DNA from: Elusimicrobiota bacterium
GTDB taxonomy: Bacteria; Elusimicrobiota; Elusimicrobia; Elusimicrobiales; UBA9959
Reading direction: 5' to 3'
Length of the DNA stretch: 34,793 nt
NCBI GenBank assembly: GCA_029267355.1
Contig: JAJUJA010000008.1
Coordinates: 1-34,793, forward strand
Below, piece by piece: positions 20,125 through 34,653 of the stretch (position 1 is its first letter; the number at the start of each line of letters is the position of its first letter). The position numbers and the translations under genes were made by a program. Under the pieces are notes generated by a model. That model saw nothing but the letters and a program-made list of their open reading frames with translations, did not search any database and was not told the DNA's origin.

Positions 20125-20619
20125 ATGTATGTGAGCGACAATACCCCTCCGCTTTTCAGGGATTTTTTCAGTCTGGGCCAGTCCTTGTCGCCTTCAAACA
20201 GATGGCTTAAGCTTTCCGAGATGATTCCATGGGAAAAAATAGACAGAGTCTACTCGGAAAACTTTTCTCCAAACAGCGGCCGCTATGCTTTGGACAGCAG
20301 GCTTGTTTGCGGCCTTTTCATTGTAAAATACATCAAGAACCTTACTGATGAGGAAACTGTGAGAGAATACGAGGAAAATCCCTATATTCAGGCATTTTGC
20401 GGCAAGATACATTTTTCAAAGGAAAGCGAATTTTCGGTTTCCATGCTTTCGGAGAGGCGCAAGCGGCTTGACCAAAAGTTTTGGGATTTTTGGAATTCAG
20501 AAATATTGACGCTTCTTGATGAGCAGAAATTTTTTAAATTTCCTAAAAATAAGAAAGACGGCGGCTGTTTTTTATCTTCTTTTTTCTGCGCGCTTAAAGC
20601 CAGATTATTCCGTTCCTAA
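20125..20619 (+). pseudogene. Truncated IS5/IS1182-type transposase (DUF772 N-terminal domain only)
   Basis: The 164-residue ORF matches the N-terminal DUF772 domain of IS5/IS1182-like transposases: it has LVCGLFIVKYIKNLTDEETVREYEENPYIQ-type sequence and FSVSMLSERRKRL. The whole DDE catalytic domain, normally 200 or more residues further on, is missing. The last 30 or so residues look like out-of-family tail. It begins one base after the tdk stop with no own ribosome site visible, and its TAA overlaps the convergent tolB stop by 4 bases. No terminal inverted repeats were seen. It is most likely an insertion-sequence remnant; a domesticated small protein is possible but unsupported. Confidence 0.72.
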
Positions 20620-21920
20620 TTCCTGCTCCACGAAGGAGTATAAGAATTTCCTTTCAGGTTTTCGTTCAAGGGGTGCGGGGCGCTGCCGTCTATATCCATG
20701 ACAAAAATTTCGCGCCGCCCTCGTCTTGTGGAAGTGAAAAGTATAAATCTTGAATCAGGCGAAAAGCAGGGGTCTTCATTGTCGCCTTCGCTTCTTGTCA
20801 GACGAAGGATCCTGCTGCCTGTCGGGTCGGTTATAAAAATGTTCATCTTTTCCCTGGGAGTTTCTCTGGCGGAAAAAGCTATCCATTTGCCGTCGGGCGA
20901 CCAGTCCGGAGAGTCAGCCCAATTCAGTCTAGTTATCTTTCTGGTTTTGCCGGTTTCAAAATCATAAATGTGTATTTGAGGATTGCCTGAGATATCGCTT
21001 ACAAAAACTATTTCCTTGCCGTCGGGAGAAAAAGCCGGGGAAGAACTTACTGAAAACTGCTTTATAAGCTTTTTAAGTTCTTTTGTCCTTGTTTCCATCA
21101 CATATACCGAAGGGTCTCTGCCTCTGGAAAGAGTCAGGACCATTTGAAGTCCGTCCGGAGAAAAACCGCCCGGCACATTAAGTCCCTGATAGGTGGAGAA
21201 TGGGGAAATGGTTCCCTTTTTGAAATTTATCTCATAAATGTCAGGGTTTCTGTTCTTATAGGTGGTGTAATAAAGCTTGTATGAATCATTTGACCATACA
21301 GGCAGAAATGAAATGCTTTTGTGATTCGTAAGCCGGAAAAGATTTTCACCGTCATAATCTGAAACGTATATTTCCTTGTATCCGCTTGAATCGTTGGCGA
21401 AGGCTATTTTGCTTGAAGATATGCCCTTTTTGCCCGCAATTGAAAAGATTATGTCGTCGGAAAAAATATGCGCGGCCTTTCTCAAAGATTTTTGAGAAAA
21501 AGAATAGCTCTTTTCAAATATTCTCTTTGCTTTATCCGTTTCAAATATCATGCCTTTCATAGTAAAACTTTCAGAAGAGCAGGACAGCTCGCTGAAAATA
21601 TAATACGGCGATTTTTTTGAAAAATGCTCAAGGGCTTTGGAAGAATATTCAAGAGAGAGCGGGTCCAGAGGATCTTCGGCTATCTCAAAATACCTTGAAT
21701 ACATCAAGTCTGCGCGTACTATCTCCCTCAAACTTATGGCGGACTCCAGGCAATTCTGATCGGATGAAAGCGGCTTAAAGGAAGCCAAAAAAATTTCTTT
21801 CGGCTTAGCCGGCGAAAGTTCAAGGCCTATATAAACCTGAGTATTTTGCGCCAAAGCCGATGAGCAGAAAAAGAGTGCGAAAAAGAAGAATAATTTACTT
21901 TTTGACTGGCTTTTTGGCAT
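20616..21920 (-). CDS. tolB: Tol-Pal system protein TolB
   Basis: TolB is a periplasmic beta-propeller that binds Pal and links it to the TolQRA motor during outer-membrane constriction at division. A signal peptide (KLFFFFALFFCSSALA) is followed by the N-terminal TolB domain (about 25-165). A C-terminal propeller holds five or six PD40-type repeats, seen as SFLPVWSNDS, VPGGFSPDG, SSPAFSPDG, DSPDWSPDG, DPCFSPDS and YTPSWSRN. The length is 434 residues. The start lies inside the end of cpoB (26-base overlap) and is the only Met before the signal peptide. It is last in the pal-cpoB-tolB unit. Confidence 0.93.
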   Translation of the reverse strand: MPKSQSKSKLFFFFALFFCSSALAQNTQVYIGLELSPAKPKEIFLASFKPLSSDQNCLESAISLREIVRADLMYSRYFEIAEDPLDPLSLEYSSKALEHFSKKSPYYIFSELSCSSESFTMKGMIFETDKAKRIFEKSYSFSQKSLRKAAHIFSDDIIFSIAGKKGISSSKIAFANDSSGYKEIYVSDYDGENLFRLTNHKSISFLPVWSNDSYKLYYTTYKNRNPDIYEINFKKGTISPFSTYQGLNVPGGFSPDGLQMVLTLSRGRDPSVYVMETRTKELKKLIKQFSVSSSPAFSPDGKEIVFVSDISGNPQIHIYDFETGKTRKITRLNWADSPDWSPDGKWIAFSARETPREKMNIFITDPTGSRILRLTRSEGDNEDPCFSPDSRFILFTSTRRGRREIFVMDIDGSAPHPLNENLKGNSYTPSWSRN

Positions 21921-22647
21921 TTTGTTCCGGCTTTGCCTGAATGTCCTCTTTTTTAAGCATATCCTTTGCGATTTTGGCTTCCGCGCCGGTAGGGAAATCC
22001 TTTAATATCGATTTGAGATACCTTAAGGCTTCTTTTTTCTTTTCATCATTTTTCAGGGCAAGAAGAGATTGCGCATACTTAAGCCTGACTGAAGGCGTTT
22101 TTAAGTAGTTTGGATACTTTTCCAGTATTTTAGCGTAGAATATGGCTGCTTCTTCATAATTTTTTTTCTCAAACAGTATCTCGCCGCTGTAATAGTAGGC
22201 GTTATCGGCATTTTCATAGCCGGGATATTTTGCAAGGTATTCCGCAAACAGTTTAAGAGCTTCATCTTTATTTGAGGATGAATAAGCGGCTACCGCAGAA
22301 GAGTAAAGTTTAGCCGGCAATATCGTCTTCTCCACATCTTCCTGCTGTTTTTTGACAGTTTGGCCTATATAGTTTATTTTCTTGTCGGTAAGCGAGCCGT
22401 ATTCGTCTATCTTGGCCGACAGCTTGCCGATATCTGAAGAGAGATCTTTCATATTTTCAGATGAAGCGTTAAGGGAGGCGTTGAGATTGTCTATCTTCAA
22501 AGCCAAGTCTGCCTGATTTTTCTGCATCGTTGAAAGGTTGGCGTTCAAGTCATCTATCTGGCTTTGCAGCAAAAGCATGTCATTCTGCGTTGCCATGCAG
22601 CCCGCCAGCGTCAGCAAGGGAATTGCAGCCAGAATCTTTCTGTTCAT
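21895..22647 (-). CDS. cpoB: CpoB/YbgF-like TPR protein, predicted lipoprotein
   Basis: The E. coli homologue coordinates the Tol-Pal machine with peptidoglycan synthesis at the septum. Here the signal sequence ends in a lipobox LAGC with the lipidated Cys17, so this copy is a predicted lipoprotein; E. coli CpoB is a soluble periplasmic protein. An N-terminal Asp/Asn/Leu-rich coiled coil (about 22-95) is followed by tetratricopeptide repeats (about 110-230, with AYYYSGEILFEKKNYEEA). A Lys-rich tail ends the 250-residue protein. It overlaps pal by 4 bases and tolB by 26 bases. Function is inferred from family and position. Confidence 0.85.
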   Translation of the reverse strand: MNRKILAAIPLLTLAGCMATQNDMLLLQSQIDDLNANLSTMQKNQADLALKIDNLNASLNASSENMKDLSSDIGKLSAKIDEYGSLTDKKINYIGQTVKKQQEDVEKTILPAKLYSSAVAAYSSSNKDEALKLFAEYLAKYPGYENADNAYYYSGEILFEKKNYEEAAIFYAKILEKYPNYLKTPSVRLKYAQSLLALKNDEKKKEALRYLKSILKDFPTGAEAKIAKDMLKKEDIQAKPEQNAKKPVKK

Positions 22648-23162
22648 TTTGACACCTTCGTTTCCGCCCTTCTGTTCTTTGCCCAGCAGGCGTCATTGTC
22701 CTCTTTGCACAAGGGGCTTTCTTCGCCGTATGAAATGGTGCCTATTGAGGTTTCCGGAACTCCAAGTTTCATATAGTAGTCTTTTACGACATTGGCTCTT
22801 TTCTGGCCGAGAGCCAGATTGTACTCTATGGTGCCTCTGTTGTCGCAATGGCCTTCCACAAGCACGGTCCATTTCTTTTCTTTGAGTATTTTGGCATTTT
22901 CAGAAAGGATTTTTGCCATATCGGGGCTTATTTCATACTTGTCAAATTCAAAAAATATCGTGTTTATCCCTTCGCTGGAAGAAAATTCCGGAGCCCTTAT
23001 ATCGGCTTCCTGGCCGATTTGGCCTTCCATGGCCGAGACGTCCTCAACCTTCTGCACAGATTCCTGCTGCTGAGCCGGCTGGGCTGTCTTAACATTCTTT
23101 TTGCTGCAGGCAAATGAAAACACAAAAGCGAGAGATAAGAAAGGGTAAACGAAGTTTCTCAT
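22644..23162 (-). CDS. pal: Peptidoglycan-associated lipoprotein Pal
   Basis: Pal is anchored in the outer membrane by a lipid and binds peptidoglycan through an OmpA-like domain. The signal sequence ends in FSFAC, giving lipidated Cys19. A Gln/Glu-rich linker follows, then the OmpA domain (about 65-172) with IFFEFDKYEIS and the peptidoglycan-binding segment VEGHCDNRGTIEYNLALGQKRA. The length of 172 residues is typical. GGAGG precedes the ATG (minus strand), and a strong promoter lies upstream at 23198-23226. It is the first gene of the unit and overlaps cpoB by four bases. Confidence 0.95.
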   Translation of the reverse strand: MRNFVYPFLSLAFVFSFACSKKNVKTAQPAQQQESVQKVEDVSAMEGQIGQEADIRAPEFSSSEGINTIFFEFDKYEISPDMAKILSENAKILKEKKWTVLVEGHCDNRGTIEYNLALGQKRANVVKDYYMKLGVPETSIGTISYGEESPLCKEDNDACWAKNRRAETKVSK

Positions 23163-23197
23163 AAATCCTCCAAATTCCGAGTATTACAGCACTTTCA

Positions 23198-23226
23198 ATT
23201 ATATCAAAAAAATACCCGTATGTTAA
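23198..23226 (-). promoter_or_regulatory. Strong promoter for pal-cpoB-tolB
   Basis: Read on the minus strand, TTAACA (-35, plus-strand 23221-23226) and TATAAT (-10, plus-strand 23198-23203) are separated by exactly 17 bases. This is the best sigma70-type promoter match in the window. The leader to the pal ATG is about 30 bases. Confidence 0.8.
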
Positions 23227-23230
23227 AAAA

Positions 23231-23239
23231 TGCTAAAAT
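23231..23239 (+). promoter_or_regulatory. Extended -10 promoter for the polyprenyl synthase gene, close to its ATG
   Basis: TGCTAAAAT fits an extended -10 element and is part of a 12-mer identical to that before rpmE. It ends only 9 bases before the ATG at 23249, so a start 6-9 bases downstream would give a leaderless or near-leaderless mRNA. No good -35 box is present. Confidence 0.5.
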
Positions 23240-23248
23240 ATCGCTTCA

Positions 23249-24196
23249 ATGGAAAAAGCCGGTGAAATGATATTACAAGTCAAATCTGAGATTGGAAAGT
23301 CTTTTTCTTTTCTCGGTGAAGAAATCATTTCCCCAAAGGAAGCCGATTATTTGTCTTTGGGCAAGGCTGTGCGTTCCAGATTCTCTTTCTACATAGGTAA
23401 AGCCCTGGACATTCCGGTTGAGAAATCTCTGACACTGGCTGTATGCGCTGAAATAGTGCATAATGCCTCGCTTCTCCACGATGATTGCATAGATGAGGCC
23501 GTTTTAAGAAGGGGCCGGCCTACCGCAAATTCGGCTTTGGGCATCAATAAGGCCATACTTATAGGCGATTTGGCAATGGCCGCGGCTTTTAAAAAGGCGG
23601 AAAATCTTTCCTGCGAAATCTCGTCGCAGCTTGTGGCGGCTGTCGGGAAAATGGCTGAGAGCGCTTTGCTTGAAGAAAATTTTAAGAACAAGCTCATAAA
23701 CAGAACGGATTATTACAGGGTCGTTTCCGGTAAAACGTCGGCCCTGTTCCGCTGGATGGCCGTTTCTTCGGCTTTTTTTGTAAAAGAGCCTTTTTTTGAA
23801 AAAACTGCCGCAGCGGCGGAAAATTTCGGCCTTGCCTTTCAAATAACCGACGACGCGATAGATATTGAAAATTGCGGCGAATCCGGGAAAGACTGCCTGA
23901 AAGACCTTTCTGAGGGGAAATGCTCCATGCCTTTGATAATAGCTCTTGAGAATGAAAATTTCAGGCGCGAAAATGAAACGATGATAAGAGATTTCTTTTC
24001 CTCTCCCGTCAAGGACCTTGCCGCCGCAGCTGATATCGCCGCAAAAATCAGGGAAGGCGGATTTTGCGCCAAAGCCAGAAAAGAGGCGGAAAAAAAGGTC
24101 CTTGATATAAAAGATTTGATTTGCGATTTCCCCAATCGCGAAGGAATAAACGAATTTTACGGGCTTGCGATGAGCATTTGTTCAAGAAGCTTTTGA
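23249..24196 (+). CDS. Long-chain polyprenyl diphosphate synthase
   Basis: This is a trans-isoprenyl diphosphate synthase that extends allylic diphosphates with IPP, probably for a quinone side chain. The first Asp-rich motif is DDCID at residues 78-82 in HNASLLHDDCID, followed by RRGRPTAN. The second is DDAID near 201-206 in QITDDAID. The residue five places before the first motif is Ala, which in this family usually allows long products, so an octaprenyl-like product is inferred. The length is 315 residues. The ATG at 23249 has no Shine-Dalgarno site; the Met at codon 7 (23267) is an alternative start with a weak GGTGA. Confidence 0.9.
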   Translation: MEKAGEMILQVKSEIGKSFSFLGEEIISPKEADYLSLGKAVRSRFSFYIGKALDIPVEKSLTLAVCAEIVHNASLLHDDCIDEAVLRRGRPTANSALGINKAILIGDLAMAAAFKKAENLSCEISSQLVAAVGKMAESALLEENFKNKLINRTDYYRVVSGKTSALFRWMAVSSAFFVKEPFFEKTAAAAENFGLAFQITDDAIDIENCGESGKDCLKDLSEGKCSMPLIIALENENFRRENETMIRDFFSSPVKDLAAAADIAAKIREGGFCAKARKEAEKKVLDIKDLICDFPNREGINEFYGLAMSICSRSF

Positions 24197-24209
24197 AGAT
24201 GTAACGCAA

Positions 24210-24226
24210 GTAACTCTTATTGTTAC
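24210..24226 (+). terminator. Weak hairpin after the polyprenyl synthase gene
   Basis: GTAAC-TCTTATT-GTTAC forms a 5-bp stem, followed by AAACTTTTTCTT. It is a poor match to a terminator, but it is placed 13 bases after the stop and just before the next promoter. Confidence 0.3.
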
Positions 24227-24236
24227 AAACTTTTTC

Positions 24237-24265
24237 TTGTCATACTTGCCTGCATAATGTAAAAT
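24237..24265 (+). promoter_or_regulatory. Promoter for the fecR-domain / surface-protein unit
   Basis: TTGTCA (24237-24242) and TAAAAT (24260-24265) are separated by exactly 17 bases, each one mismatch from consensus. The expected leader is about 55-60 bases before the ATG at 24330. It is the only good promoter seen before the 10.4-kb run that extends to the window end. Confidence 0.65.
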
Positions 24266-24329
24266 GTCCGTATGTTTCTGCTCACGGGCGGCTTTGCGGA
24301 ATTTTGATTTTATATGCGATGGAGGACTT

Positions 24330-25838
24330 ATGCGGTCCATTTTTGTTTTTGCTTTGTTTTTGTTAATGGAAACTTTTTCATTTTGCGCCTATCTCAGCGA
24401 GGTGAAAGGAGAGGTATTTATCAAGCCGCAGGATTCGGCTTTCTGGAACAAAATAGAATCACAGGCCGGCAATTTGAAGATAAAAAACAGAGATGAGATA
24501 AGGACCTCCAGAGCATCCTCGGCTGAAATCGTTATGGACGACGGCAGCAGGATAAAGATCGCTCCTTTTTCTTATTTCAGACTGGAAGAGGAAAACCAGA
24601 CGGCTGCGAAAATAAATTTAATGGCCGGCAAAATAAGAAACTGGGTGAAGAAATTTTCAAAAAAATTTGACGTTAAGACGCCAACGGCCGTTTGCGCCGT
24701 AAGAGGAACAGATTTTATGGTCGCAGTTGACATGGAAGGCGGCACAAGGGTTGAGGTTTATGACGGCAGCGTGGCTGCCGGCGATTCAAGGGGCAGAGAG
24801 ATACTGGTGAGAAAAGGGGAAATGATAGAAGTGGGCAAAGACGGCCTTGGCGAAAAAATGGAAAATAAAAATCCGCCCCAAGAAATGGCCTCTTCCATAG
24901 GCGACAAGAAAGAAGCCGCGAGGAAGGAGCTTTATTCCGAGATTTCAAAGGATGCGGTAATAAAACAGGCGCAGGCCGAAATGCAGTCTGCCGAGTACCA
25001 GAACAGAAAAACCGCCATAGACGCCTACGGCCTGAGAGTGAGAATGGAAGAGTACATAGTAAGGCCGGCAGACAATCAATTCAAATATGTAGTATTAAAT
25101 ACGAGGAAAGATTCCTTCAATTTCGGGAAAATACTTTTCACATTTAATTCGCCTTTGCCTGAGGACTTGTCCATGGCCACTAAAAATATGCTCTATTATG
25201 AGGGCAGCTCCGCGCCGCAATGGTATTTGACCGAAATGAACAGCGTTATTTCAAATACCTACGACAAAGTTACGGAAGACGCTTCCGGCGGAAAGATGAT
25301 AGCCGATAATGCCTCCGCTCCTTCTTATTGGACTCATTTTTTCTCTAATTACGGCGTATATTTTGCAGGGCCGGCAGAGGGCGCTGAAAACGGCGGACTC
25401 GGGCGGCTTTTGTGGAAATATTCCGACTCCAACAATAACAACATCGCGGACAGCGGTGAATTTGTTTTCCTCGGCAACAGGACAGTAACCTCCGTGACTT
25501 CAATTTCTTCCTATCAGAAGCAATACAATTTCAATGACGGTTCTTCAATGATAGCCACAAGGATAAATCCTTCTGGGGACGATGTGTTTGATAACATTGT
25601 AAGGAACGAATATTCGGATGGAACATGGATAAATACCAGAGATTATCTTCTCTTTGATGACGGCAAAATCGCTTCCGCAGGCGATTTTGCTTCTTCAATA
25701 GGCGGAGTTTCACGTTCCGATATAGCCGACAGGCTGAATTTTGAGAGAGTTTATGAAAGTTCGCTGTTTCAGGGAAGGAAAATTGACCTGGAATTCTCGG
25801 CGAAACTTTTAAAAGACGCGGGTCTTATAAGGTTTTAA
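24330..25838 (+). CDS. Exported FecR-domain protein
   Basis: The protein has a signal peptide (MRSIFVFALFLLMETFSFCA) and a FecR domain at about residues 22-170. This is seen in VKGEVFIK, DEIRTSRASSAEIVMDDGS, VKTPTAVCAVRGTDFMV and GGTRVEVYDGSV. There is no N-terminal anti-sigma domain or transmembrane helix and no sigma-factor gene nearby, so it is not a classical FecR regulator. A charged helical stretch (about 175-235) and a C-terminal region of unknown fold follow; that region contains an EF-hand-like loop DSNNNNIADSGE. The ORF track starts at 24264, but the ATG at 24330 has GGAGG upstream and begins the signal peptide. Ten bases separate it from the barrel gene. Its role may be structural or adhesive; this is inference. 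Confidence 0.8.
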   Translation: MRSIFVFALFLLMETFSFCAYLSEVKGEVFIKPQDSAFWNKIESQAGNLKIKNRDEIRTSRASSAEIVMDDGSRIKIAPFSYFRLEEENQTAAKINLMAGKIRNWVKKFSKKFDVKTPTAVCAVRGTDFMVAVDMEGGTRVEVYDGSVAAGDSRGREILVRKGEMIEVGKDGLGEKMENKNPPQEMASSIGDKKEAARKELYSEISKDAVIKQAQAEMQSAEYQNRKTAIDAYGLRVRMEEYIVRPADNQFKYVVLNTRKDSFNFGKILFTFNSPLPEDLSMATKNMLYYEGSSAPQWYLTEMNSVISNTYDKVTEDASGGKMIADNASAPSYWTHFFSNYGVYFAGPAEGAENGGLGRLLWKYSDSNNNNIADSGEFVFLGNRTVTSVTSISSYQKQYNFNDGSSMIATRINPSGDDVFDNIVRNEYSDGTWINTRDYLLFDDGKIASAGDFASSIGGVSRSDIADRLNFERVYESSLFQGRKIDLEFSAKLLKDAGLIRF

Positions 25839-25848
25839 CGGAGGGTAA

Positions 25849-27045
25849 ATGAGATTTTTACTTTTCTTTGCTTTATTTCCGGTTTTGGCTCAGATGTCAT
25901 TTGGCGCTGTTAAATATAATCCTGTAGGCGATTTGTCCGTTTACGGAGGGAAATATTATCTTGACGGGGATTCGGCTTCGGCTGATCTGAAGATTGACGC
26001 TTTTTTCTCGCCATCTTTTATTTTTGACGAAAAAAACGAATTCTATCCCGTATATATGGGTTACTATAACGGCACTCAGGATGTTCAGGAACTTGCAGGC
26101 GGCGGGGTGCTTACAAGGCAGAGACAGGAGCACACACTTTCTCTTAAGTATGTGAGAGTGAACGATTTTGATAAGATAAAACCGAGAATTTCCTATTCAA
26201 AAGCCCTTGTAAAGGAGACAAAGGACGAAAAATGGGGCGACGGCCTGTTTGACTACGATACTATATCTCTAGGAGTTGAATTTGAGCAGGAAAGACCTCA
26301 TGGAACCTTCTCTCAATCCTACGATTATTTTTCCGTTAGATATCCGAATTATTCCTCGCTTATTTCCTCTGCGGATACCGTCATAGATACCACCACATAC
26401 AGCGAGCTTTCAAAGAATGCCGGGGACAATACCTTGAACAATTCATCTCACAGGGCCGCTTTTTCGTATATATGGTTTCCGAACACTGACGTTATGAAAA
26501 TATCCGCAAGTTTCACCTACAGAACTTATTCGGATCAGAGCGTGGTATCAAAGACTGGAGGATTTAAATCGGAAAAAAGAAAGGATATGCTGGCAGGATT
26601 TGGTTTCAGGTGGGAAAAACCTTCAAAAAAGCTTCCTCTTTCCTTTGATTTTGCCTTTGACAGGCAGCTTTCAAATCAAAATTCCTATGACGCTTCAAGA
26701 ACAAAGTATATAGACGATTTTTACGGCTATACGAGGTTATCAGCCGGACCAAGGGCCGATTTCTTTTTCAAAAACGGCTCATCATTCGGCTACGGACTTA
26801 ACTGGGAAAAAATTTACTATTCAGGCAGGCTTGCCCAGGACGCGGCTGGAAATTACAGGAATGACACCATACATCAGGAGTTTTGGCTCAACAGCCTTTA
26901 CTTCCGCTATCCTTTGGGCAAAAAGATATTTGTCAGAGTTAATTATTCTTATCAGGCCTCAAGCTCAAATATGAGATATGAAGCCGGCTACAGGTACAAT
27001 TACTCGGCCAGTTCATGGCTTGCCGGCTTGCAGTGGGAGTTTTAA
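25849..27045 (+). CDS. Predicted outer-membrane beta-barrel protein, family not recognised
   Basis: I do not recognise this family. A signal peptide (MRFLLFFALFPVLAQMSFG) is followed by about 380 residues rich in Tyr, Phe, Ser and Asp with many alternating polar/hydrophobic strands, for example ISASFTYRTYS, FGFRWEK and FVRVNYSYQAS. It ends in LAGLQWEF; the terminal Phe is the usual barrel signal for BAM. There are no evident enzymatic motifs. The ATG at 25849 has GGAGGG upstream. It sits between the FecR-domain gene and the giant exported protein with gaps of 10 and 21 bases, so the three are probably cotranscribed. It may be a dedicated channel or anchor for its neighbours, but that is inference. 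Confidence 0.75.
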   Translation: MRFLLFFALFPVLAQMSFGAVKYNPVGDLSVYGGKYYLDGDSASADLKIDAFFSPSFIFDEKNEFYPVYMGYYNGTQDVQELAGGGVLTRQRQEHTLSLKYVRVNDFDKIKPRISYSKALVKETKDEKWGDGLFDYDTISLGVEFEQERPHGTFSQSYDYFSVRYPNYSSLISSADTVIDTTTYSELSKNAGDNTLNNSSHRAAFSYIWFPNTDVMKISASFTYRTYSDQSVVSKTGGFKSEKRKDMLAGFGFRWEKPSKKLPLSFDFAFDRQLSNQNSYDASRTKYIDDFYGYTRLSAGPRADFFFKNGSSFGYGLNWEKIYYSGRLAQDAAGNYRNDTIHQEFWLNSLYFRYPLGKKIFVRVNYSYQASSSNMRYEAGYRYNYSASSWLAGLQWEF

Positions 27046-27066: not shown

Positions 27067-30000
27067 ATGAAAAACAAAATATTATCCTTTTTTTGCCTGC
27101 TGTTTCTGGGTTTGTCTTTTGCACACGCCGCCGACCCGTATTTTAACTATACCGGAAATCCCGGGTTTGTGAATGACTCCATTGAACCAAATTACCCTCA
27201 GCAAAATACAGGAGTAAGATTTGAAGTCAAGTATTTTTCTGACGGGAATATCCCGCCTGCTTCAGCGTTCCCGAAACTCAAAATTGTCAAGGACGGGGTG
27301 GAAACATCCTATTTAATGCTGCCTCTCATACCCCTGGATACCTATTATATTGACGGGAAAGATTATTTTGTCAATACCAGTTTCGGCTCAAGCGGTTTTT
27401 ACGAGTATTACTTTGAAGTCAGGTCGTCCACCTCGGCCACTATAGTTCAATCGCCCCGATTCGGTTTTCTGGTTCTGGATGCATATCATAACTACGGAAA
27501 TTTTCTGTCCACTTCCGGCGCTGTTGCGGGAACTGATTCATGGGATCAGGCGATTGACATAAAGACAGACAGCGGGGGGAATGTATATGTCCTTGGCTAC
27601 TACAATCCCTACTCGTACATAATTAAATACTCAACAGGCGGTGCTTTCCTCGGCAGGACCATTCTTGAACCGAATGTTCAGTACAAAAAGCTATTCATAA
27701 ATTCCTCAAACCATATATTCGCAGCAGGAGACTATTACGATTATCAGTTCTATTCAAACAAAGTTTCGGTTTCCAAATACGATTCCTCAATGGTTTTTAT
27801 GTCCTCAAGTTCATATCAATTCTCTGCGTCCACAAATTCTTGGTTTTCTGATATGACCGGCGACGGCTCCGCCCTTTACATATGTTCCCAGAATGATGAC
27901 TCGCGCTTCAACATAAGCAAGATAGGTTTTAATCTTTCTCCAGCGGCTTCTTTTGACGATTCCGGTTCTTCAAACAGCTCCTGCAATTCAATAGCCGCAG
28001 CAAATTCAAGCGTTTTCGCCTTGACGCAGATAAACGGAGTTCCTGTTTTAGTTAAGCTTCCTGATACACTGTCTCCTGTTTCCCTTTCATCAACAAGCGT
28101 AAGTAATTCCAACAATTATCAGCATATGTCAGCCGATTCTGCCGGCAACACTTATCTGCTCGGCCAAAGGCAAATTTGCGATACATATTGCGAGAATTTC
28201 ATAACTCTTGAGAAGAGGGATTTTTCTCTCTCTTTAAGCTCTCAGGCTTATCAGGTCTATCAGGGCTGGAATCAGCCGACAGATGTCTTTGTTGACACAA
28301 TGTCAAATGTCGGAGTCTCAGTCCAAATAGAAAACAACGGAAACAGCGATTATGGAGTTTATCTTTTTGATTCCTCCACGCTTGATATTAAGAACTTTTT
28401 TTACTACGACGGCGGAGCATGGGACAGTCCGAGAGCTTTAAGTATGTCAGGCAATAACGTATATGTAACAGGTATTTCCGATATAGAACAGCCCGGCAAT
28501 ATCTATCAGTCGGATATAAGAACGGTCAGGCTTGTTAATGACCTTTCTCAAAACAGAGCGCCTGAGCTTTTATGGCTTAATTCAGGCGATTACTGGTATA
28601 AAGGCGTGAGTCCGCAAAACGGTCTGACCGGCGGCAGCTTTGATTTCAAAATTTTGTATAGAGATCTCGACAGCGATCCTACGGCTTATATAAGGGTCGA
28701 AATATATAAAGACGGCACTCCTATATCAGGAAGCCCGTTCGACCTTTATTATGAATCAGGCATCAGCACTTTTACGGGTATAGTTTATCACGCTGCTATA
28801 ACCCTGCCGGGAGCCGGACAGTACTCTTATAAATTTTCCGCGGCGGATTTCCATGGCGGCTCAATTGGTCTTGCGGCTAAGGGCTATCCGGCTGAAAATA
28901 TGAGCTACGGCCCTGTGATTGCCGAGGGATTCAGCGGAAACTTGTCTCTTTCTACAGGCGCTGCTTATTCTATGGGCTGGAATATGGAGCCGGAGGATAT
29001 AACCGTTTTGAGCCGTTCGGGAGAAGGCGACTATGTCTACGCTCTTGCCGAGATAGACAATTCACCTTACATAATCAAGTTCAGCACGGGCCTTAATTCT
29101 TTGTCCGTCTCAAGCCAAATAGTTTCGAACGATCCTTATCACGCCGATCTTATTTTTAATGACAAGGCGGACAATATTTATCTGGCTGGGCTTACAAGCA
29201 TAGCCAATAAGTACTACCTTGACGTAAGAAGGTATAACTTGAAACTGGATAATACCAAGTCTGGAACTTTCAATCTCGGCATGGATTCAGTAAGTCTTGA
29301 AGACTCCGCCTCTGACGGCTCATCATCATATATTCTTTTCAGAGATGTATACAACGGCAAGCAGAGGGCCAGAATAAGCGCTTTTGACAACACATTAACG
29401 CATGTGTATTTGCTGGGAGCAGAGGATTTGACTTTCAGGCCGCATAATGCTGACGGCTCATCATATTTTGACGCTTATCCATCCGGCATGGTTTTAGACT
29501 CGTCAGGAAATATTTACATAGCCGGGTATTATTATCATGATGAAATCGGCTTAAATCAGGGGAATAATATTTTTGTGGCTAAATTTGACGCTTCAAACGG
29601 ATATTCAGTATCATCCTTTACATTTACATCCCCCGGCGCTTTCAGCGATGATAAGGCGCAGAGCATAGACCTTGACCAGTCAGGGAACATATTTGTTTCC
29701 GGCATTGTTAACAATGGCCAGAGAAATATGTGGCTGGCTCTTAAGCTGGACAATTCGCTCAATCTTGTGAATTCAAAGCTTTTTGATGCAGGCGAGCTTT
29801 CGGAAAATTATGATGTTTCATTCTCAACTCACAGCAATTCCCTGTTTATTTCAGGGTATGTTGAAGAAAAAGGAAATTTTTATGAAAAAAGGTACAAGGG
29901 TCTGGTGCTTAATCTGGACAGCAATCTCGTTTTCAAGTCTTCGTTTACATACGGCAGCAACAATGAAGATACAAGATTGGGATTTGCTGATTTGAATTCC

Positions 30001-33000
30001 CAGGGCCAGGTTTATGTTTTGGGTCTTAAGAGAATAACAGATAATAGCGGTACAAACCAGAAAATTATAGTCCTTAAACCGTCGTTAAATGAAAACAAGG
30101 CTGTTTTCAATTTGTTCGCCTTTAAAAAATCCGACAATTCTCCGATGAGAGATATGAATATCTCTCTTATACCTTACAATCCCATGGGCTACCCTGATGT
30201 TGGACTTATTGATTTTGGTGTAACCTCTTCATCAGGCAATGCCTCTTTCTCTGTTGTTAAAGGTCTAAATTATCTGATAGCCGTAAGCACGCCGGGCTAT
30301 TCGCCAAGGGTAAAGGAACAGGTTTATGACCCTTACGGCAATTTCAATAAAACATTCACTTCCAATATTTCATCCAATTATTACTTCAGTCCTTTGACTA
30401 CGCAGGCCAATACGCTAAGACTGAATATAAAGAACGTCTATAAAGGCGCTTTGCTTATGGGCGAGGTTTATTTCCTGCAAAACGGCGAAAGGGCAGCTTA
30501 CGGCATTTTATCGGCTACAGGCCCGATTTCCACTATGGAAATACATAATGTGCCGAATATAGCTGCCGGCTCCTATGGAGTAAATGTGAATATACCGGGT
30601 TTTATCTCAAGAGATATATATCCCTTTACAGCAATACCATCCACTTCTCCTATTTTAGTTGATATGTCTATGGCCGGACCGCCGTCCTCAAACTATACGC
30701 AAAATATTTCCACGGCTTCGGCTTTTTTCAGCGGCCTGGTTTTGGATTTAAACGGAAGCCCCATACAGGGCGCTTCTGTGAGAGCTTACTGCAATTGCGG
30801 CCCTTCGGGATGCGAGTTTGAAAAAAGGGTTTACAGCGATGCCAACGGCCGTTTTGCGGCTTACGGATATGACAGCGAAAGTTCCTGCTCTCCTTTGTAC
30901 TATGAAATTGGGAAAATAGGCTACAATAAATATCCTTCAAGAGATATGGGGCCGGCTCCTTCATTCGTCCCGCCATATCTCAATATCACTTATATGCTGA
31001 CTCCTGCGACATATTCTGTGAGCGGATATGTAAGGTATATGGGCAGCCCTATAGCCTATGCCAAGCTGAGAATAGGCCCTTCATGGGATAGTTTCTCGGG
31101 CTCTGATTCCTATGCCGGAAATGGAAAAGGAATAGATAACTCAGATTTTATGGTTATTACCGACGGGGACGGCTATTTCAGTTTTACAGGAATAAGCGAC
31201 GGGAACTTGAATATATCTGTAGAGAATCCTTTGTACAGGAGCATTTCGGGCGGCATTGACGGCGATATAGACACAAAAGAGGACAATATAAGAATAACTG
31301 TCAGCTCTTCTCCTGCCGCCGCCCCCGGTTATCCATGTATAGCAGGCAAGGTCTGGGTTTTAGACAGCACCGGCACATGCAAGGGTGTTATGCCTTATGT
31401 TTTTGATATGGGTATAGGCGTATCTACAAATGCCATTGTAGCCGGAAGTCTGACCTTCGCTTCAACTTATACAGTTACAGGCTCAAATCCTCTTGTAATT
31501 TCAAAGTCATCTGCTGTCGTAGTGGCTCTGATTGAGGAATGCGACGGGGAATGCCAAACGAGAAAATCATTCTTCTCAACCGTGTGGGGCACCTACGGCT
31601 CAAACATTATTCCATATTCGGTAAGCGTTTCAAGTTATGACCCTGTAACAGGACAGCCTGTAAGATACTGGCTTACCGTGCTTTCAAATTCCTGGGCCAA
31701 TCTTAATTCCTTTGACGGGGATATTTCCTTTTCAACATCTAATGTCATCACAAGGCATATAAGCCTTGTAAAATCAGGCAAAATCACGGGCTATATAAAA
31801 ACATCAGACGGCTCCGTATATATACCGCCTCAAAACAGCAGGCCGAGAATAAAAATAAAGGGCGAAACTGTTTCCTATGACAAAGACGACGAAATAAGGG
31901 ATGACGGCACATTTGAGTTTGAAAATGTGCCGGGCGGGAAGTATGATGCCATAGTACAATTTCCCGATGACAGTTCTTATGTGCCTCTGGAACTGGAAGA
32001 TGTTGTTGTAAATGAAGGCAAAACTACAAATATAACTTTCTCGCTTAAGGAAGGTTTATATGTGCAGCCCAAGATATACGGCCTGCCTGAAATATCTACA
32101 GTTTCATGGCAATATAAGGTAATGGCAGTTCCAAGCGGATCGCAAATGAGCAGTTCTTTTATAACCGAAATGTTTTTTGGCGAGCCGATGTATGTCTTTG
32201 ATTATGATGCTGTTGCTTCAATCTGGAGCACAAAAGTTTTGCCTGAAGGCCGCTTTGACTTTTATCTGCTGCTTGTCTCAAGGTATTGTACTCCCGGAGA
32301 CACAGAATGCGGTTCAGCGAACTACAATCAGTTTGCCAATTTTATCGGCAGAAGCAGGGGCGTTAACATAAAATATGATTCCAACTCTCCTCTGCTTGGA
32401 ACTTTTTCTCAGCCGATTAATGTCAGTATTGTAGGTTCAATAGGCCAGAACTATATGGGAGGCATTGGAAAGGGGGAAAGAATTTTTACGGATTTTGACT
32501 ATCAGAGACTTTTTGCCGATTTCCAGAACCAAATTATGCCTCTTATACCTTCGGTTATGATATATGACACCGCCGGCGATTTAAGGGGCTTTTCTCACAT
32601 AATATGCGATGAAAACGGTCTTGCAGCGCTTATGAACGGCGTGCTTGAAAGGAATCAATCAGCTATAAGAGATTCAATAGCGGCAGGAATGTACAAATAC
32701 TATATCTGGGGCCTGCCGCCGGGCAAATACACGGCTGTTTTCTCAAATCCAAATTATCCTCCAATTGCCAGAAATGTGACACTGCCGGACAATTCCTCCT
32801 ATGATTTAAACTTTGACCAGGCTAATGTTTCAGTCGGAAACATAGTCGGAGTTGTGAAAAGCTCAGATTCCCTGTCTTCCCCGCTTTCAAACGCCATGAT
32901 ATACCTGAAAGGAAAAATCACCAGTAAATATGCCGTCACTGACAGCTCAGGGCGATTCACATTTTCGGATATGCCTGCCGGCTCTTACAAGATAGAGATT

Positions 33001-34653
33001 TCAATGGACGGCTTTGCCAAATCCGGTAAAAAGTTTTCTCTCGGCAAAGATGATACTGCCGACCTCGGCACATTTTATCTCAAACCTACCACTTCAACGA
33101 TAGCGGGCAAAATATACTATTCAAGGTTTCCAACCCCTCAGGTTAAAGAAGGCATAAAAATTTCCGCCTATGATGAAACCTTGAATGTTACAGACCCGCA
33201 GAGTTATCTGCCTGTTCTGGAAGATATAACAGATGAAAACGGACTTTTTGAATTGAAAGGCGTCGTGCCGGGACACAATTACAAACTTGTTGTGGCTGAA
33301 ACCGGCAAACAGGTTTTTTCAACTGTTACCTACGTAAGCGAGGGCATCAATTATGTTCAGGATATAACTTTGGCTGACTTGCCCCCTGAAATAACCGTGA
33401 AGATAAAGAAAGATGCCGATTCGCCGAATAAGGTTAATGTGTCCATACAGAGCCCCAAGGAGCTTGTAAGCATACCTTCATGCCAGTATAATGAGGGCAG
33501 CGTTTTTGACTCCTCATCGGCTGTTTCTCTGGCCTTGGTCCCTGCCGCCAATAAAACTTATGTCGGCCAATTTACCATATCTTCGGCTTCAAGGTATTAC
33601 ACCATAAAAGTTTCAGCCGGCGACTCAACTCAAGTTGAGAAAACCATAGTTTATGACAGTCTGTCAAACTCCAAGACCGAGCAGTACATAAGCGCGGCAT
33701 CTTTGCTTGGCGGAAATGTTTATATGGACAGCGAAAAGGAAGAATATTCCGGCCTTGAACTGGATGCCGGAGCTTTGACTCAGACCAGCACGGCTGCGGT
33801 GGATATGAGCGATTTGGCAGGCGGTTTCTTCAGCGCCCTGCCCAATGTAAGGACTGTCAAGACGAATAAAGGGGATTTGACCATAGATTCTGTTATACAG
33901 AATATAATGGCCTCTGAGGTTTACGATATAGACCTTTCAAACGCTCAGGCCAACAAGTCCTTTACCATTTCGCTTAAATACGATAAGGAGAAAGCGGCTG
34001 CCTCAGGATCATTGAAAATCTATCAATATGATCAGTACTCAGGCGAATGGAAAGAGGTGCCTGGCACCTATGATATAGACCCGACCATGGGAGTTGTCTC
34101 AGTTTCTGTGGACAGTCTTGAAAGCGCTTATGAAGGTTCCGCTTCCGGCTCATCGCCGATGGCAAGAAAAGCGCATAAAATGAGCGCTATTTCGCCCAAG
34201 GGTTATTATGTGCCTTCGGCGGCATCATCCTCTCAAAGCGGAAAGTTTGCCGTGTTCTCCGCCAAGCCGCCGTCCGGAGTAACATATTCAGGTTCGGCTT
34301 TTGAAATCTATAATATGCCTAATCCTTTTAATCTCAAGGATAAAACTCTCTCTATTTCAGACGGGTGGAGCGGAGTTACCGGCACAAATTATGTAACAAG
34401 AGGCACTATAATAAAATACTTCTTGCCTGCCTCAAAGAGCGGCAATGTTAAACTTGTAATTTACAATAATGCCGGCGAGAAGGTCAGAACTCTTGATGAA
34501 GGTTCCCGTTCCGGCGGGCAGGTTTATTACGCTGAATGGGACGGCAAGAATGATGAAAATGAGGACTGCGCCAGCGGGGTGTATTTCCTTATGACATATC
34601 TTAATGGCGACAAACTTGGAAATAAGCCTCATAAAATGGCGATAATAAAATAG
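27067..34653 (+). CDS. Giant exported multidomain protein with Por/FlgD-like C-terminal domain
   Basis: The 2528-residue protein starts with a signal peptide (MKNKILSFFCLLFLGLSFAHA). Two propeller-like regions (about 159-500 and 637-1010) carry SBBP-type repeats such as GNVYVLGYY, GNTYLLGQ, GNIYIAGYY and GNIFVSGI, separated by an Ig-like segment (about 500-600). About six carboxypeptidase-regulatory-like beta domains follow, near 1012, 1219, 1315, 1569, 1922 and 2009; examples are VTDSSGRFTFSDMPAGSYKI and ITDENGLFELKGVVPG. The C-terminal domain (about 2410-2528) has NMPNPFN, LVIYNNAGEKVRTL, AEWDGKN and SGVYFLM, resembling type IX sorting or FlgD-Ig domains. Cysteines cluster in pairs, suggesting disulfides. 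No protease or hydrolase motif was seen. It is probably surface-displayed, with an adhesive or structural role inferred. GAGAGG precedes the ATG. Confidence 0.85.
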   Translation: MKNKILSFFCLLFLGLSFAHAADPYFNYTGNPGFVNDSIEPNYPQQNTGVRFEVKYFSDGNIPPASAFPKLKIVKDGVETSYLMLPLIPLDTYYIDGKDYFVNTSFGSSGFYEYYFEVRSSTSATIVQSPRFGFLVLDAYHNYGNFLSTSGAVAGTDSWDQAIDIKTDSGGNVYVLGYYNPYSYIIKYSTGGAFLGRTILEPNVQYKKLFINSSNHIFAAGDYYDYQFYSNKVSVSKYDSSMVFMSSSSYQFSASTNSWFSDMTGDGSALYICSQNDDSRFNISKIGFNLSPAASFDDSGSSNSSCNSIAAANSSVFALTQINGVPVLVKLPDTLSPVSLSSTSVSNSNNYQHMSADSAGNTYLLGQRQICDTYCENFITLEKRDFSLSLSSQAYQVYQGWNQPTDVFVDTMSNVGVSVQIENNGNSDYGVYLFDSSTLDIKNFFYYDGGAWDSPRALSMSGNNVYVTGISDIEQPGNIYQSDIRTVRLVNDLSQNRAPELLWLNSGDYWYKGVSPQNGLTGGSFDFKILYRDLDSDPTAYIRVEIYKDGTPISGSPFDLYYESGISTFTGIVYHAAITLPGAGQYSYKFSAADFHGGSIGLAAKGYPAENMSYGPVIAEGFSGNLSLSTGAAYSMGWNMEPEDITVLSRSGEGDYVYALAEIDNSPYIIKFSTGLNSLSVSSQIVSNDPYHADLIFNDKADNIYLAGLTSIANKYYLDVRRYNLKLDNTKSGTFNLGMDSVSLEDSASDGSSSYILFRDVYNGKQRARISAFDNTLTHVYLLGAEDLTFRPHNADGSSYFDAYPSGMVLDSSGNIYIAGYYYHDEIGLNQGNNIFVAKFDASNGYSVSSFTFTSPGAFSDDKAQSIDLDQSGNIFVSGIVNNGQRNMWLALKLDNSLNLVNSKLFDAGELSENYDVSFSTHSNSLFISGYVEEKGNFYEKRYKGLVLNLDSNLVFKSSFTYGSNNEDTRLGFADLNSQGQVYVLGLKRITDNSGTNQKIIVLKPSLNENKAVFNLFAFKKSDNSPMRDMNISLIPYNPMGYPDVGLIDFGVTSSSGNASFSVVKGLNYLIAVSTPGYSPRVKEQVYDPYGNFNKTFTSNISSNYYFSPLTTQANTLRLNIKNVYKGALLMGEVYFLQNGERAAYGILSATGPISTMEIHNVPNIAAGSYGVNVNIPGFISRDIYPFTAIPSTSPILVDMSMAGPPSSNYTQNISTASAFFSGLVLDLNGSPIQGASVRAYCNCGPSGCEFEKRVYSDANGRFAAYGYDSESSCSPLYYEIGKIGYNKYPSRDMGPAPSFVPPYLNITYMLTPATYSVSGYVRYMGSPIAYAKLRIGPSWDSFSGSDSYAGNGKGIDNSDFMVITDGDGYFSFTGISDGNLNISVENPLYRSISGGIDGDIDTKEDNIRITVSSSPAAAPGYPCIAGKVWVLDSTGTCKGVMPYVFDMGIGVSTNAIVAGSLTFASTYTVTGSNPLVISKSSAVVVALIEECDGECQTRKSFFSTVWGTYGSNIIPYSVSVSSYDPVTGQPVRYWLTVLSNSWANLNSFDGDISFSTSNVITRHISLVKSGKITGYIKTSDGSVYIPPQNSRPRIKIKGETVSYDKDDEIRDDGTFEFENVPGGKYDAIVQFPDDSSYVPLELEDVVVNEGKTTNITFSLKEGLYVQPKIYGLPEISTVSWQYKVMAVPSGSQMSSSFITEMFFGEPMYVFDYDAVASIWSTKVLPEGRFDFYLLLVSRYCTPGDTECGSANYNQFANFIGRSRGVNIKYDSNSPLLGTFSQPINVSIVGSIGQNYMGGIGKGERIFTDFDYQRLFADFQNQIMPLIPSVMIYDTAGDLRGFSHIICDENGLAALMNGVLERNQSAIRDSIAAGMYKYYIWGLPPGKYTAVFSNPNYPPIARNVTLPDNSSYDLNFDQANVSVGNIVGVVKSSDSLSSPLSNAMIYLKGKITSKYAVTDSSGRFTFSDMPAGSYKIEISMDGFAKSGKKFSLGKDDTADLGTFYLKPTTSTIAGKIYYSRFPTPQVKEGIKISAYDETLNVTDPQSYLPVLEDITDENGLFELKGVVPGHNYKLVVAETGKQVFSTVTYVSEGINYVQDITLADLPPEITVKIKKDADSPNKVNVSIQSPKELVSIPSCQYNEGSVFDSSSAVSLALVPAANKTYVGQFTISSASRYYTIKVSAGDSTQVEKTIVYDSLSNSKTEQYISAASLLGGNVYMDSEKEEYSGLELDAGALTQTSTAAVDMSDLAGGFFSALPNVRTVKTNKGDLTIDSVIQNIMASEVYDIDLSNAQANKSFTISLKYDKEKAAASGSLKIYQYDQYSGEWKEVPGTYDIDPTMGVVSVSVDSLESAYEGSASGSSPMARKAHKMSAISPKGYYVPSAASSSQSGKFAVFSAKPPSGVTYSGSAFEIYNMPNPFNLKDKTLSISDGWSGVTGTNYVTRGTIIKYFLPASKSGNVKLVIYNNAGEKVRTLDEGSRSGGQVYYAEWDGKNDENEDCASGVYFLMTYLNGDKLGNKPHKMAIIK

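What the first reader, a model, noticed from the sequence alone, without database searches (positions are those of the whole stretch)
23198..23251. Overlapping divergent promoters and a possible leaderless isoprenoid synthase mRNA
The minus-strand pal promoter (TTAACA-17-TATAAT) occupies 23198-23226. The plus-strand extended -10 TGCTAAAAT at 23231-23239 has its -35 region inside the pal spacer, so two polymerases could not bind at once. The plus-strand -10 ends 9 bases before ATG 23249, which has no Shine-Dalgarno site. This geometry predicts a leaderless or 1-3 base leader transcript, while most genes here have strong GGAGG sites.
Basis: partly seen in the sequence, partly recalled or inferred. 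Interest (0 to 1): 0.5.

Follow-up and report, generated by a model that had tools for sequence, protein, structure and literature searches.

The report
Leaderless mRNA promoter in Elusimicrobia
A gene for making long isoprenoid chains appears to be transcribed from its start codon, or 1-3 bases before it, with no ribosome-binding leader; the same layout recurs in its relatives and in many other genes of this little-studied bacterial class (Elusimicrobia), where I found no earlier report of leaderless messages.

Summary
The minus-strand pal promoter (TTAACA-17-TATAAT, 11 of 12) and the plus-strand extended -10 TGCTAAAAT, 9 nt before ATG 23249 with no Shine-Dalgarno (SD) site, are where stated. 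The plus strand has no usable -35 (2 of 6). The window belongs to order Elusimicrobiales, phylum Elusimicrobiota. Of 30 polyprenyl-synthase orthologues from its family, 23 carry TGnTAnAAT 5-18 nt before the start codon (0.12 expected in shuffles) and none has an SD; the start is Met1, not Met7.

The layout is also genome-wide. In this genome and two others of the order, SD-less ATG genes show TAnAAT peaking exactly 6 nt before ATG (P from 4e-13 to 7e-21). The peak is ATG-specific, concentrated in transcription-unit-first genes and absent in E. coli. In whole genomes, TAWAAT-N6-ATG exceeds N16 1.5-fold in class Elusimicrobia but not in other classes of the phylum (1.00). Best reading: leaderless or 0-3 nt leader mRNA, as in Deinococcus-Thermus and Actinobacteria, in a class where I found no report of it. 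Overlap with the pal promoter fits mutual exclusion, but that is inferred. No 5'-end data exist here, so this remains a strong prediction.

The parts
23249..24196 (+). polyprenyl diphosphate synthase gene (315 aa), start ATG at Met1
   Evidence: PF00348 E=5.9e-44; orthologues in family f1; N-terminal length conserved
23231..23239 (+). extended -10 promoter element TGCTAAAAT, 9 nt before ATG
   Evidence: sequence; conserved as TGnTAnAAT in 24 of 30 orthologues, 23 at 5-18 nt
23240..23248 (+). discriminator plus 0-3 nt predicted leader (ATCGCTTCA); predicted transcription start 23246-23249
   Evidence: inferred from -10 to +1 spacing; no 5'-end data
23198..23226 (-). pal promoter TTAACA-17-TATAAT with TG extension
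   Evidence: 11 of 12 match
23163..23175 (-). pal leader end with SD GGAGGATTT
   Evidence: sequence
22644..23162 (-). pal, peptidoglycan-associated lipoprotein
   Evidence: TIGR02802 126.3 bits, above cut-off 125.35

Best explanation
TGCTAAAAT at 23231-23239 is a -35-independent extended -10 promoter of the main sigma factor. It starts transcription 7-10 nt downstream, at 23246-23249. The polyprenyl synthase mRNA therefore begins at, or up to 3 nt before, its AUG, and its translation must start on the 5'-terminal AUG rather than through SD pairing. This is one case of a common expression mode in class Elusimicrobia, used mainly by the first gene of a transcription unit. On the other strand, within the same 86 bp, pal uses an ordinary promoter and an SD leader. 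The two RNA polymerase footprints overlap, so initiation in one direction probably hinders the other. Shown: the elements, their conservation, and the genome-wide register. Inferred: the start site, 5'-AUG translation, and mutual exclusion.
For: Conservation in 23 of 30 orthologues against 0.12 expected, with no SD in any. Genome-wide TAnAAT 6-9 nt before ATG in SD-less genes: own genome 26 against 2.5 expected, G023 19 against 1.5, G045 29 against 5.3; at exactly 6 nt 13, 11 and 23. No peak at GTG or TTG starts. Enriched in first genes over operon-internal genes, p = 6e-4, 2e-3 and 2e-5. E. coli 0 of 89 SD-less genes. TAWAAT-N6-ATG against N16 in whole genomes: ratio 1.52 in the order, 1.55 in the rest of the class, 1.00 in 37 genomes of other classes. 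The same 6-7 bp spacing is reported for D. radiodurans (PMC12340547).
Against: No transcript 5' ends were available. The window's own spacing (9 nt) and the orthologue median (11 nt) exceed the genome-wide mode of 6, so a short leader of 1-5 nt is possible, and several orthologues would have 4-8 nt. L006 and L009 lack the element; L007, L008, L015 and L016 lack the TG extension. The absence of the peak in SD genes is partly forced, since SD and -10 would share the same bases. Families f4 and f6 of the class show no N6 excess. Within G000 alone, the whole-genome N6-to-N16 excess is weak (108 against 82, p = 0.07).
Confidence: 0.86

Rival explanations
1. The A/T-rich block is not a promoter but a ribosomal protein S1 or low-structure translation enhancer on a longer mRNA started upstream.
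For: A/T-rich signals near starts are interpreted this way in Bacteroidetes (PMC5397173; PMC3160421).
Against: The register is one base wide at 6 nt, the TG extension is conserved, and the signal is concentrated in transcription-unit-first genes. None of this is expected of S1 sites, which should also serve internal genes.
Confidence: 0.07
2. The transcript starts well upstream from another plus-strand promoter, running antisense through pal, and has a leader.
For: A TTGACA-17-TATTTT match lies at 22352-22380 on the plus strand.
Against: It lies about 870 bp upstream inside pal-operon coding DNA. There is no SD before ATG 23249, and the TGnTAnAAT element is conserved in genera where pal is not the neighbour.
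Confidence: 0.04
3. Translation starts at Met7 (ATG 23267), so the mRNA has a leader of about 20 nt.
For: GGTGA lies just before Met7.
Against: That GGTGA is 1 nt from the ATG, too close for SD pairing. Relatives L003 and L005 keep the Met1-based N-terminal length but have no Met at position 7.
Confidence: 0.03

Closest known systems
-10-adjacent ORFs / leaderless genes of Deinococcus-Thermus (PMC12340547; PMC3160421)
   Same: A -10 box 6-7 bp before the start codon, no SD, coexisting with SD-led genes.
   Different: Here the box is TAnAAT, sometimes with a TGn extension, rather than TANNNT/TACACT; the peak is seen only at ATG starts; and the detected share is about 6-9% of ATG genes rather than a third or more.
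Leaderless genes of Actinobacteria (Streptomyces, Mycobacterium; PMC3160421, PMC4633059)
   Same: Promoter placed so that +1 is the start codon.
   Different: GTG starts occur among the documented Streptomyces cases; no GTG or TTG peak here.
TG-extended leaderless signals of Lactococcus (PMC3160421)
   Same: Extended -10 with strong TG standing in for a -35 region.
   Different: Unrelated phylum; conservation here was followed within one orthologous gene.
Back-to-back divergent promoters
   Same: Two opposed sigma-70 promoters in a short intergenic space with overlapping polymerase footprints.
   Different: Here one arm is leaderless and the other leadered; in relatives the neighbour is a cation-efflux gene whose own -10 can sit 6 nt from its ATG.

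Membership tests
leaderless gene | -10 box placed so that +1 falls at or within a few nt of the start codon | tested here: met
   9 nt spacing, inside the genome's 6-9 nt peak
leaderless gene | no Shine-Dalgarno site | tested here: met
   none in window gene or in any of 30 orthologues
leaderless gene | AUG start codon at conserved position | tested here: met
   Met1 supported by relatives; class peak is ATG-only
leaderless gene | mapped transcription start at the start codon | not testable with these tools
   no RNA data; needs 5'-RACE or dRNA-seq
leaderless gene | translation from the 5'-terminal AUG | not testable with these tools
   needs reporter or toeprint assay
extended -10 promoter | TGn before the -10 hexamer, weak or absent -35 | tested here: met
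   TGCTAAAAT; best -35 match 2 of 6 at spacers 16-18
polyprenyl synthetase (PF00348) | family profile and two Asp-rich motifs | tested here: met
   E=5.9e-44; DDCID and DDAID at residues 78-82 and 201-205
mutually exclusive divergent promoters | activity of one promoter lowers the other | not testable with these tools
   footprint overlap only; inferred

The most novel reading that the evidence does not exclude
Class Elusimicrobia, including the cultured Elusimicrobium lineage, uses leaderless mRNAs as a standard second expression mode, with a preferred 6-nt spacing and AUG starts; the other classes of the phylum do not. This would be a gain or loss of a gene-expression mode within one phylum. 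Some divergent gene pairs in it are driven by minimal (28-50 bp) intergenic regions with a leaderless start on both sides.
Probability: 0.75. Interest if true: 0.52.

Novelty: new member of a known kind. Interest (0 to 1): 0.46.

Why it matters
Leaderless genes are known in several bacterial phyla, but Elusimicrobia are not among the groups named in the large survey (PMC3160421), and the searches of the held library gave no report of them there. If real, gene starts in this class should be re-annotated using the -10 register. A phylum in which one class has the mode and others lack it also makes its origin and its link to translation factors testable by comparison. For this gene, it predicts expression that does not depend on SD pairing and that competes with pal for promoter space.

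Tried and rejected
My first orthologue listing misread loci on the minus strand and was redone with orientation fixed. The positional test with the strict TGnTAnAAT motif had few counts, so TAnAAT was used for the statistics; that motif was chosen after seeing several variants side by side. The per-position letter tally printed empty because of a slicing error; motif variants were instead counted by hand (13 TGCTAAAAT, 4 TGATAAAAT, 3 TGCTAGAAT, 2 TGGTAAAAT, 1 TGGTAGAAT, 1 TGCTATAAT). The family tally covers 105 of the 149 genomes printed; the rows left out are further genomes of f2 and f10 and were dropped only to shorten typing. Met7 start, S1 enhancer and distant upstream promoter were considered and rejected (see rivals). 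One paper search failed on syntax.

Full report
What is there. The 86 bp between pal (22644-23162, minus strand; Pal_lipo) and a polyprenyl synthase gene (23249-24196, plus strand; PF00348) hold two promoters. The pal promoter is TTAACA-17-TATAAT with a TG extension at 23226-23198, the best sigma-70-like match within 21000-26000 (11 of 12), followed by a leader with GGAGGATTT. The plus strand has TGCTAAAAT at 23231-23239, ending 9 nt before ATG 23249. Its -35 position is AATACC (2 of 6) and falls in the pal spacer. No SD-like tetramer precedes the ATG.

Source. The window is contig C15 of a 1.93 Mb, 152-contig genome. One relative (G012, contig of 138379 bases) matches a public record titled Elusimicrobium minutum isolate TT109_36_37, and another (G023, contig of 729573 bases) matches an Elusimicrobiales MAG, so the window is from order Elusimicrobiales, phylum Elusimicrobiota. 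G045, a single contig of 1,643,562 bases, is from the sister family; I take it to be E. minutum itself, from memory of its genome size.

Conservation of the element. Thirty orthologues from the family (the window's own gene included) were compared by start codon. Twenty-four have TGnTAnAAT within 21 nt of the start (13 of them exactly TGCTAAAAT), and 23 have it at 5-18 nt; dinucleotide shuffles of the same upstream DNA give 0.12. Spacings run from 6 to 21 nt, median 11. None of the 30 has AGGA, GGAG or GAGG in the SD position. The closest relative shares AAAAAATGCTAAAAT and the same 9-nt spacing, while the bases between the element and the ATG have changed (L003). The start is Met1: L003 (MTENRGIILVKSEI) and L005 (MEKLDGKLHSIKNEI) have nearly the same N-terminal length as the window (MEKAGEMILQVKSEI) without a Met at position 7.

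Genome-wide test. Genes were called with a simple hexamer-based caller, and the position of TAnAAT before the first ATG was tallied. In genes without an SD the distance peaks at exactly 6 nt: 13 (0.62 expected) in the window's genome, 11 (0.38) in G023, 23 (1.3) in G045. Over 6-9 nt the counts are 26, 19 and 29, against 2.5, 1.5 and 5.3. A small sample from another family of the class (G158) gave 6 against 0.4. E. coli K-12 gave 0, and a genome from another class of the phylum (G074) gave 8 against 3.0 with no sharp register. GTG and TTG starts show no peak. The signal is concentrated in first genes of transcription units: 18/98 against 7/149, 10/133 against 0/106, and 25/144 against 2/113. 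That is expected of a promoter and not of a ribosome-binding enhancer.

Spread. Whole-genome counts of TAWAAT-N6-ATG and of a control spacing N16 (105 of 149 genomes tallied) give ratios of 1.52 for the order (40 of 41 genomes above 1), 1.55 for the rest of the class (family f7: 2.36), and 1.00 for 37 genomes of other classes. Two families of the class (f4, f6) show no excess, so the mode is not uniform. These counts include chance matches in coding DNA, so the true contrast is larger than the ratio. For the window's own genome the excess in this crude test is weak (108 against 82), while the gene-anchored test is strong.

How it most likely works. RNA polymerase with the main sigma factor recognises TGCTAAAAT without a -35 and starts 7-10 nt downstream, at 23246-23249. 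The mRNA begins at the AUG or 1-3 nt before it, and the ribosome recognises the 5'-terminal AUG. Established knowledge of leaderless mRNAs in other bacteria suggests initiation by 70S ribosomes or IF2-favoured 30S complexes; nothing here tests this. A polymerase bound at either promoter (footprint about -55 to +20, textbook value) would cover part of the other, so the two genes probably compete. In other genera of the family the neighbour is a cation-efflux gene (PF01545). In L013 and L024 its own TATAAT lies 6 nt before its ATG, so both directions appear leaderless within about 45-50 bp. The partner gene changes but the synthase promoter persists, which argues that the element serves the synthase and not a fixed pairing with pal.

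The gene. The first Asp-rich motif is preceded by small residues (A, S at -5 and -4), which from established work on prenyl synthases suggests a long-chain product; a second, more distant paralogue lies on C18. The sister family f2 lacks this orthologue (only weak hits). A role in quinone side-chain synthesis is a guess.

What is known. Leaderless genes with a -10 box about 6-7 bp before the start are established in Deinococcus-Thermus (PMC12340547) and surveyed across bacteria (PMC3160421). Elusimicrobia are not among the groups named in that survey, although an unnamed 'Other Bacteria' row could include one. The held library has two papers with both 'leaderless' and 'Elusimicrobi'; in the relevant one the phylum appears in an anti-SD table. 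This is therefore a new member of a known kind, with a class-level distribution that I have not seen described.

Limits. No RNA data. Starts are predicted. The sampled genomes are mostly MAGs apart from the apparent E. minutum chromosome. Orthologues are related by descent, so 23 of 30 is not 23 independent events, although their spacing and central bases vary.

Noticed in passing
L189:2596-2625 (G045:C1, about 342.6 kb): Two divergent genes with start codons only 28 bp apart and interleaved TATAAT boxes on both strands: a minimal two-way promoter that would be leaderless in both directions.
   Followed up: partly
L013 and L024, about 1415-1468: The cation-efflux gene divergent from the synthase orthologue has TATAAT 6 nt before its ATG, and the two -10 boxes are about 15-16 bp apart, so each lies near the other's -35 position.
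   Followed up: partly
window 24237-24330: The downstream FecR-domain gene is listed from ATG 24264, which lies inside its own -10 (TTGTCA-17-TAAAAT). The likely start is ATG 24330, preceded by GGAGG: an ordinary leadered gene.
   Followed up: no
window 20125-20619: Short ORF matching the N-terminal part of an IS5 family transposase, between thymidine kinase and tolB: probably a transposon remnant.
   Followed up: no
window 27067-34653: 2528-aa protein with carboxypeptidase-regulatory-like, beta-propeller-repeat and FlgD Ig-like matches; probably a large surface or secreted protein.
   Followed up: no
families f4 and f6 of class Elusimicrobia (G091, G130, G101, G159): No excess of TAWAAT-N6-ATG over N16, unlike other families of the class: a possible loss of the leaderless mode or use of another -10 form.
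   Followed up: no
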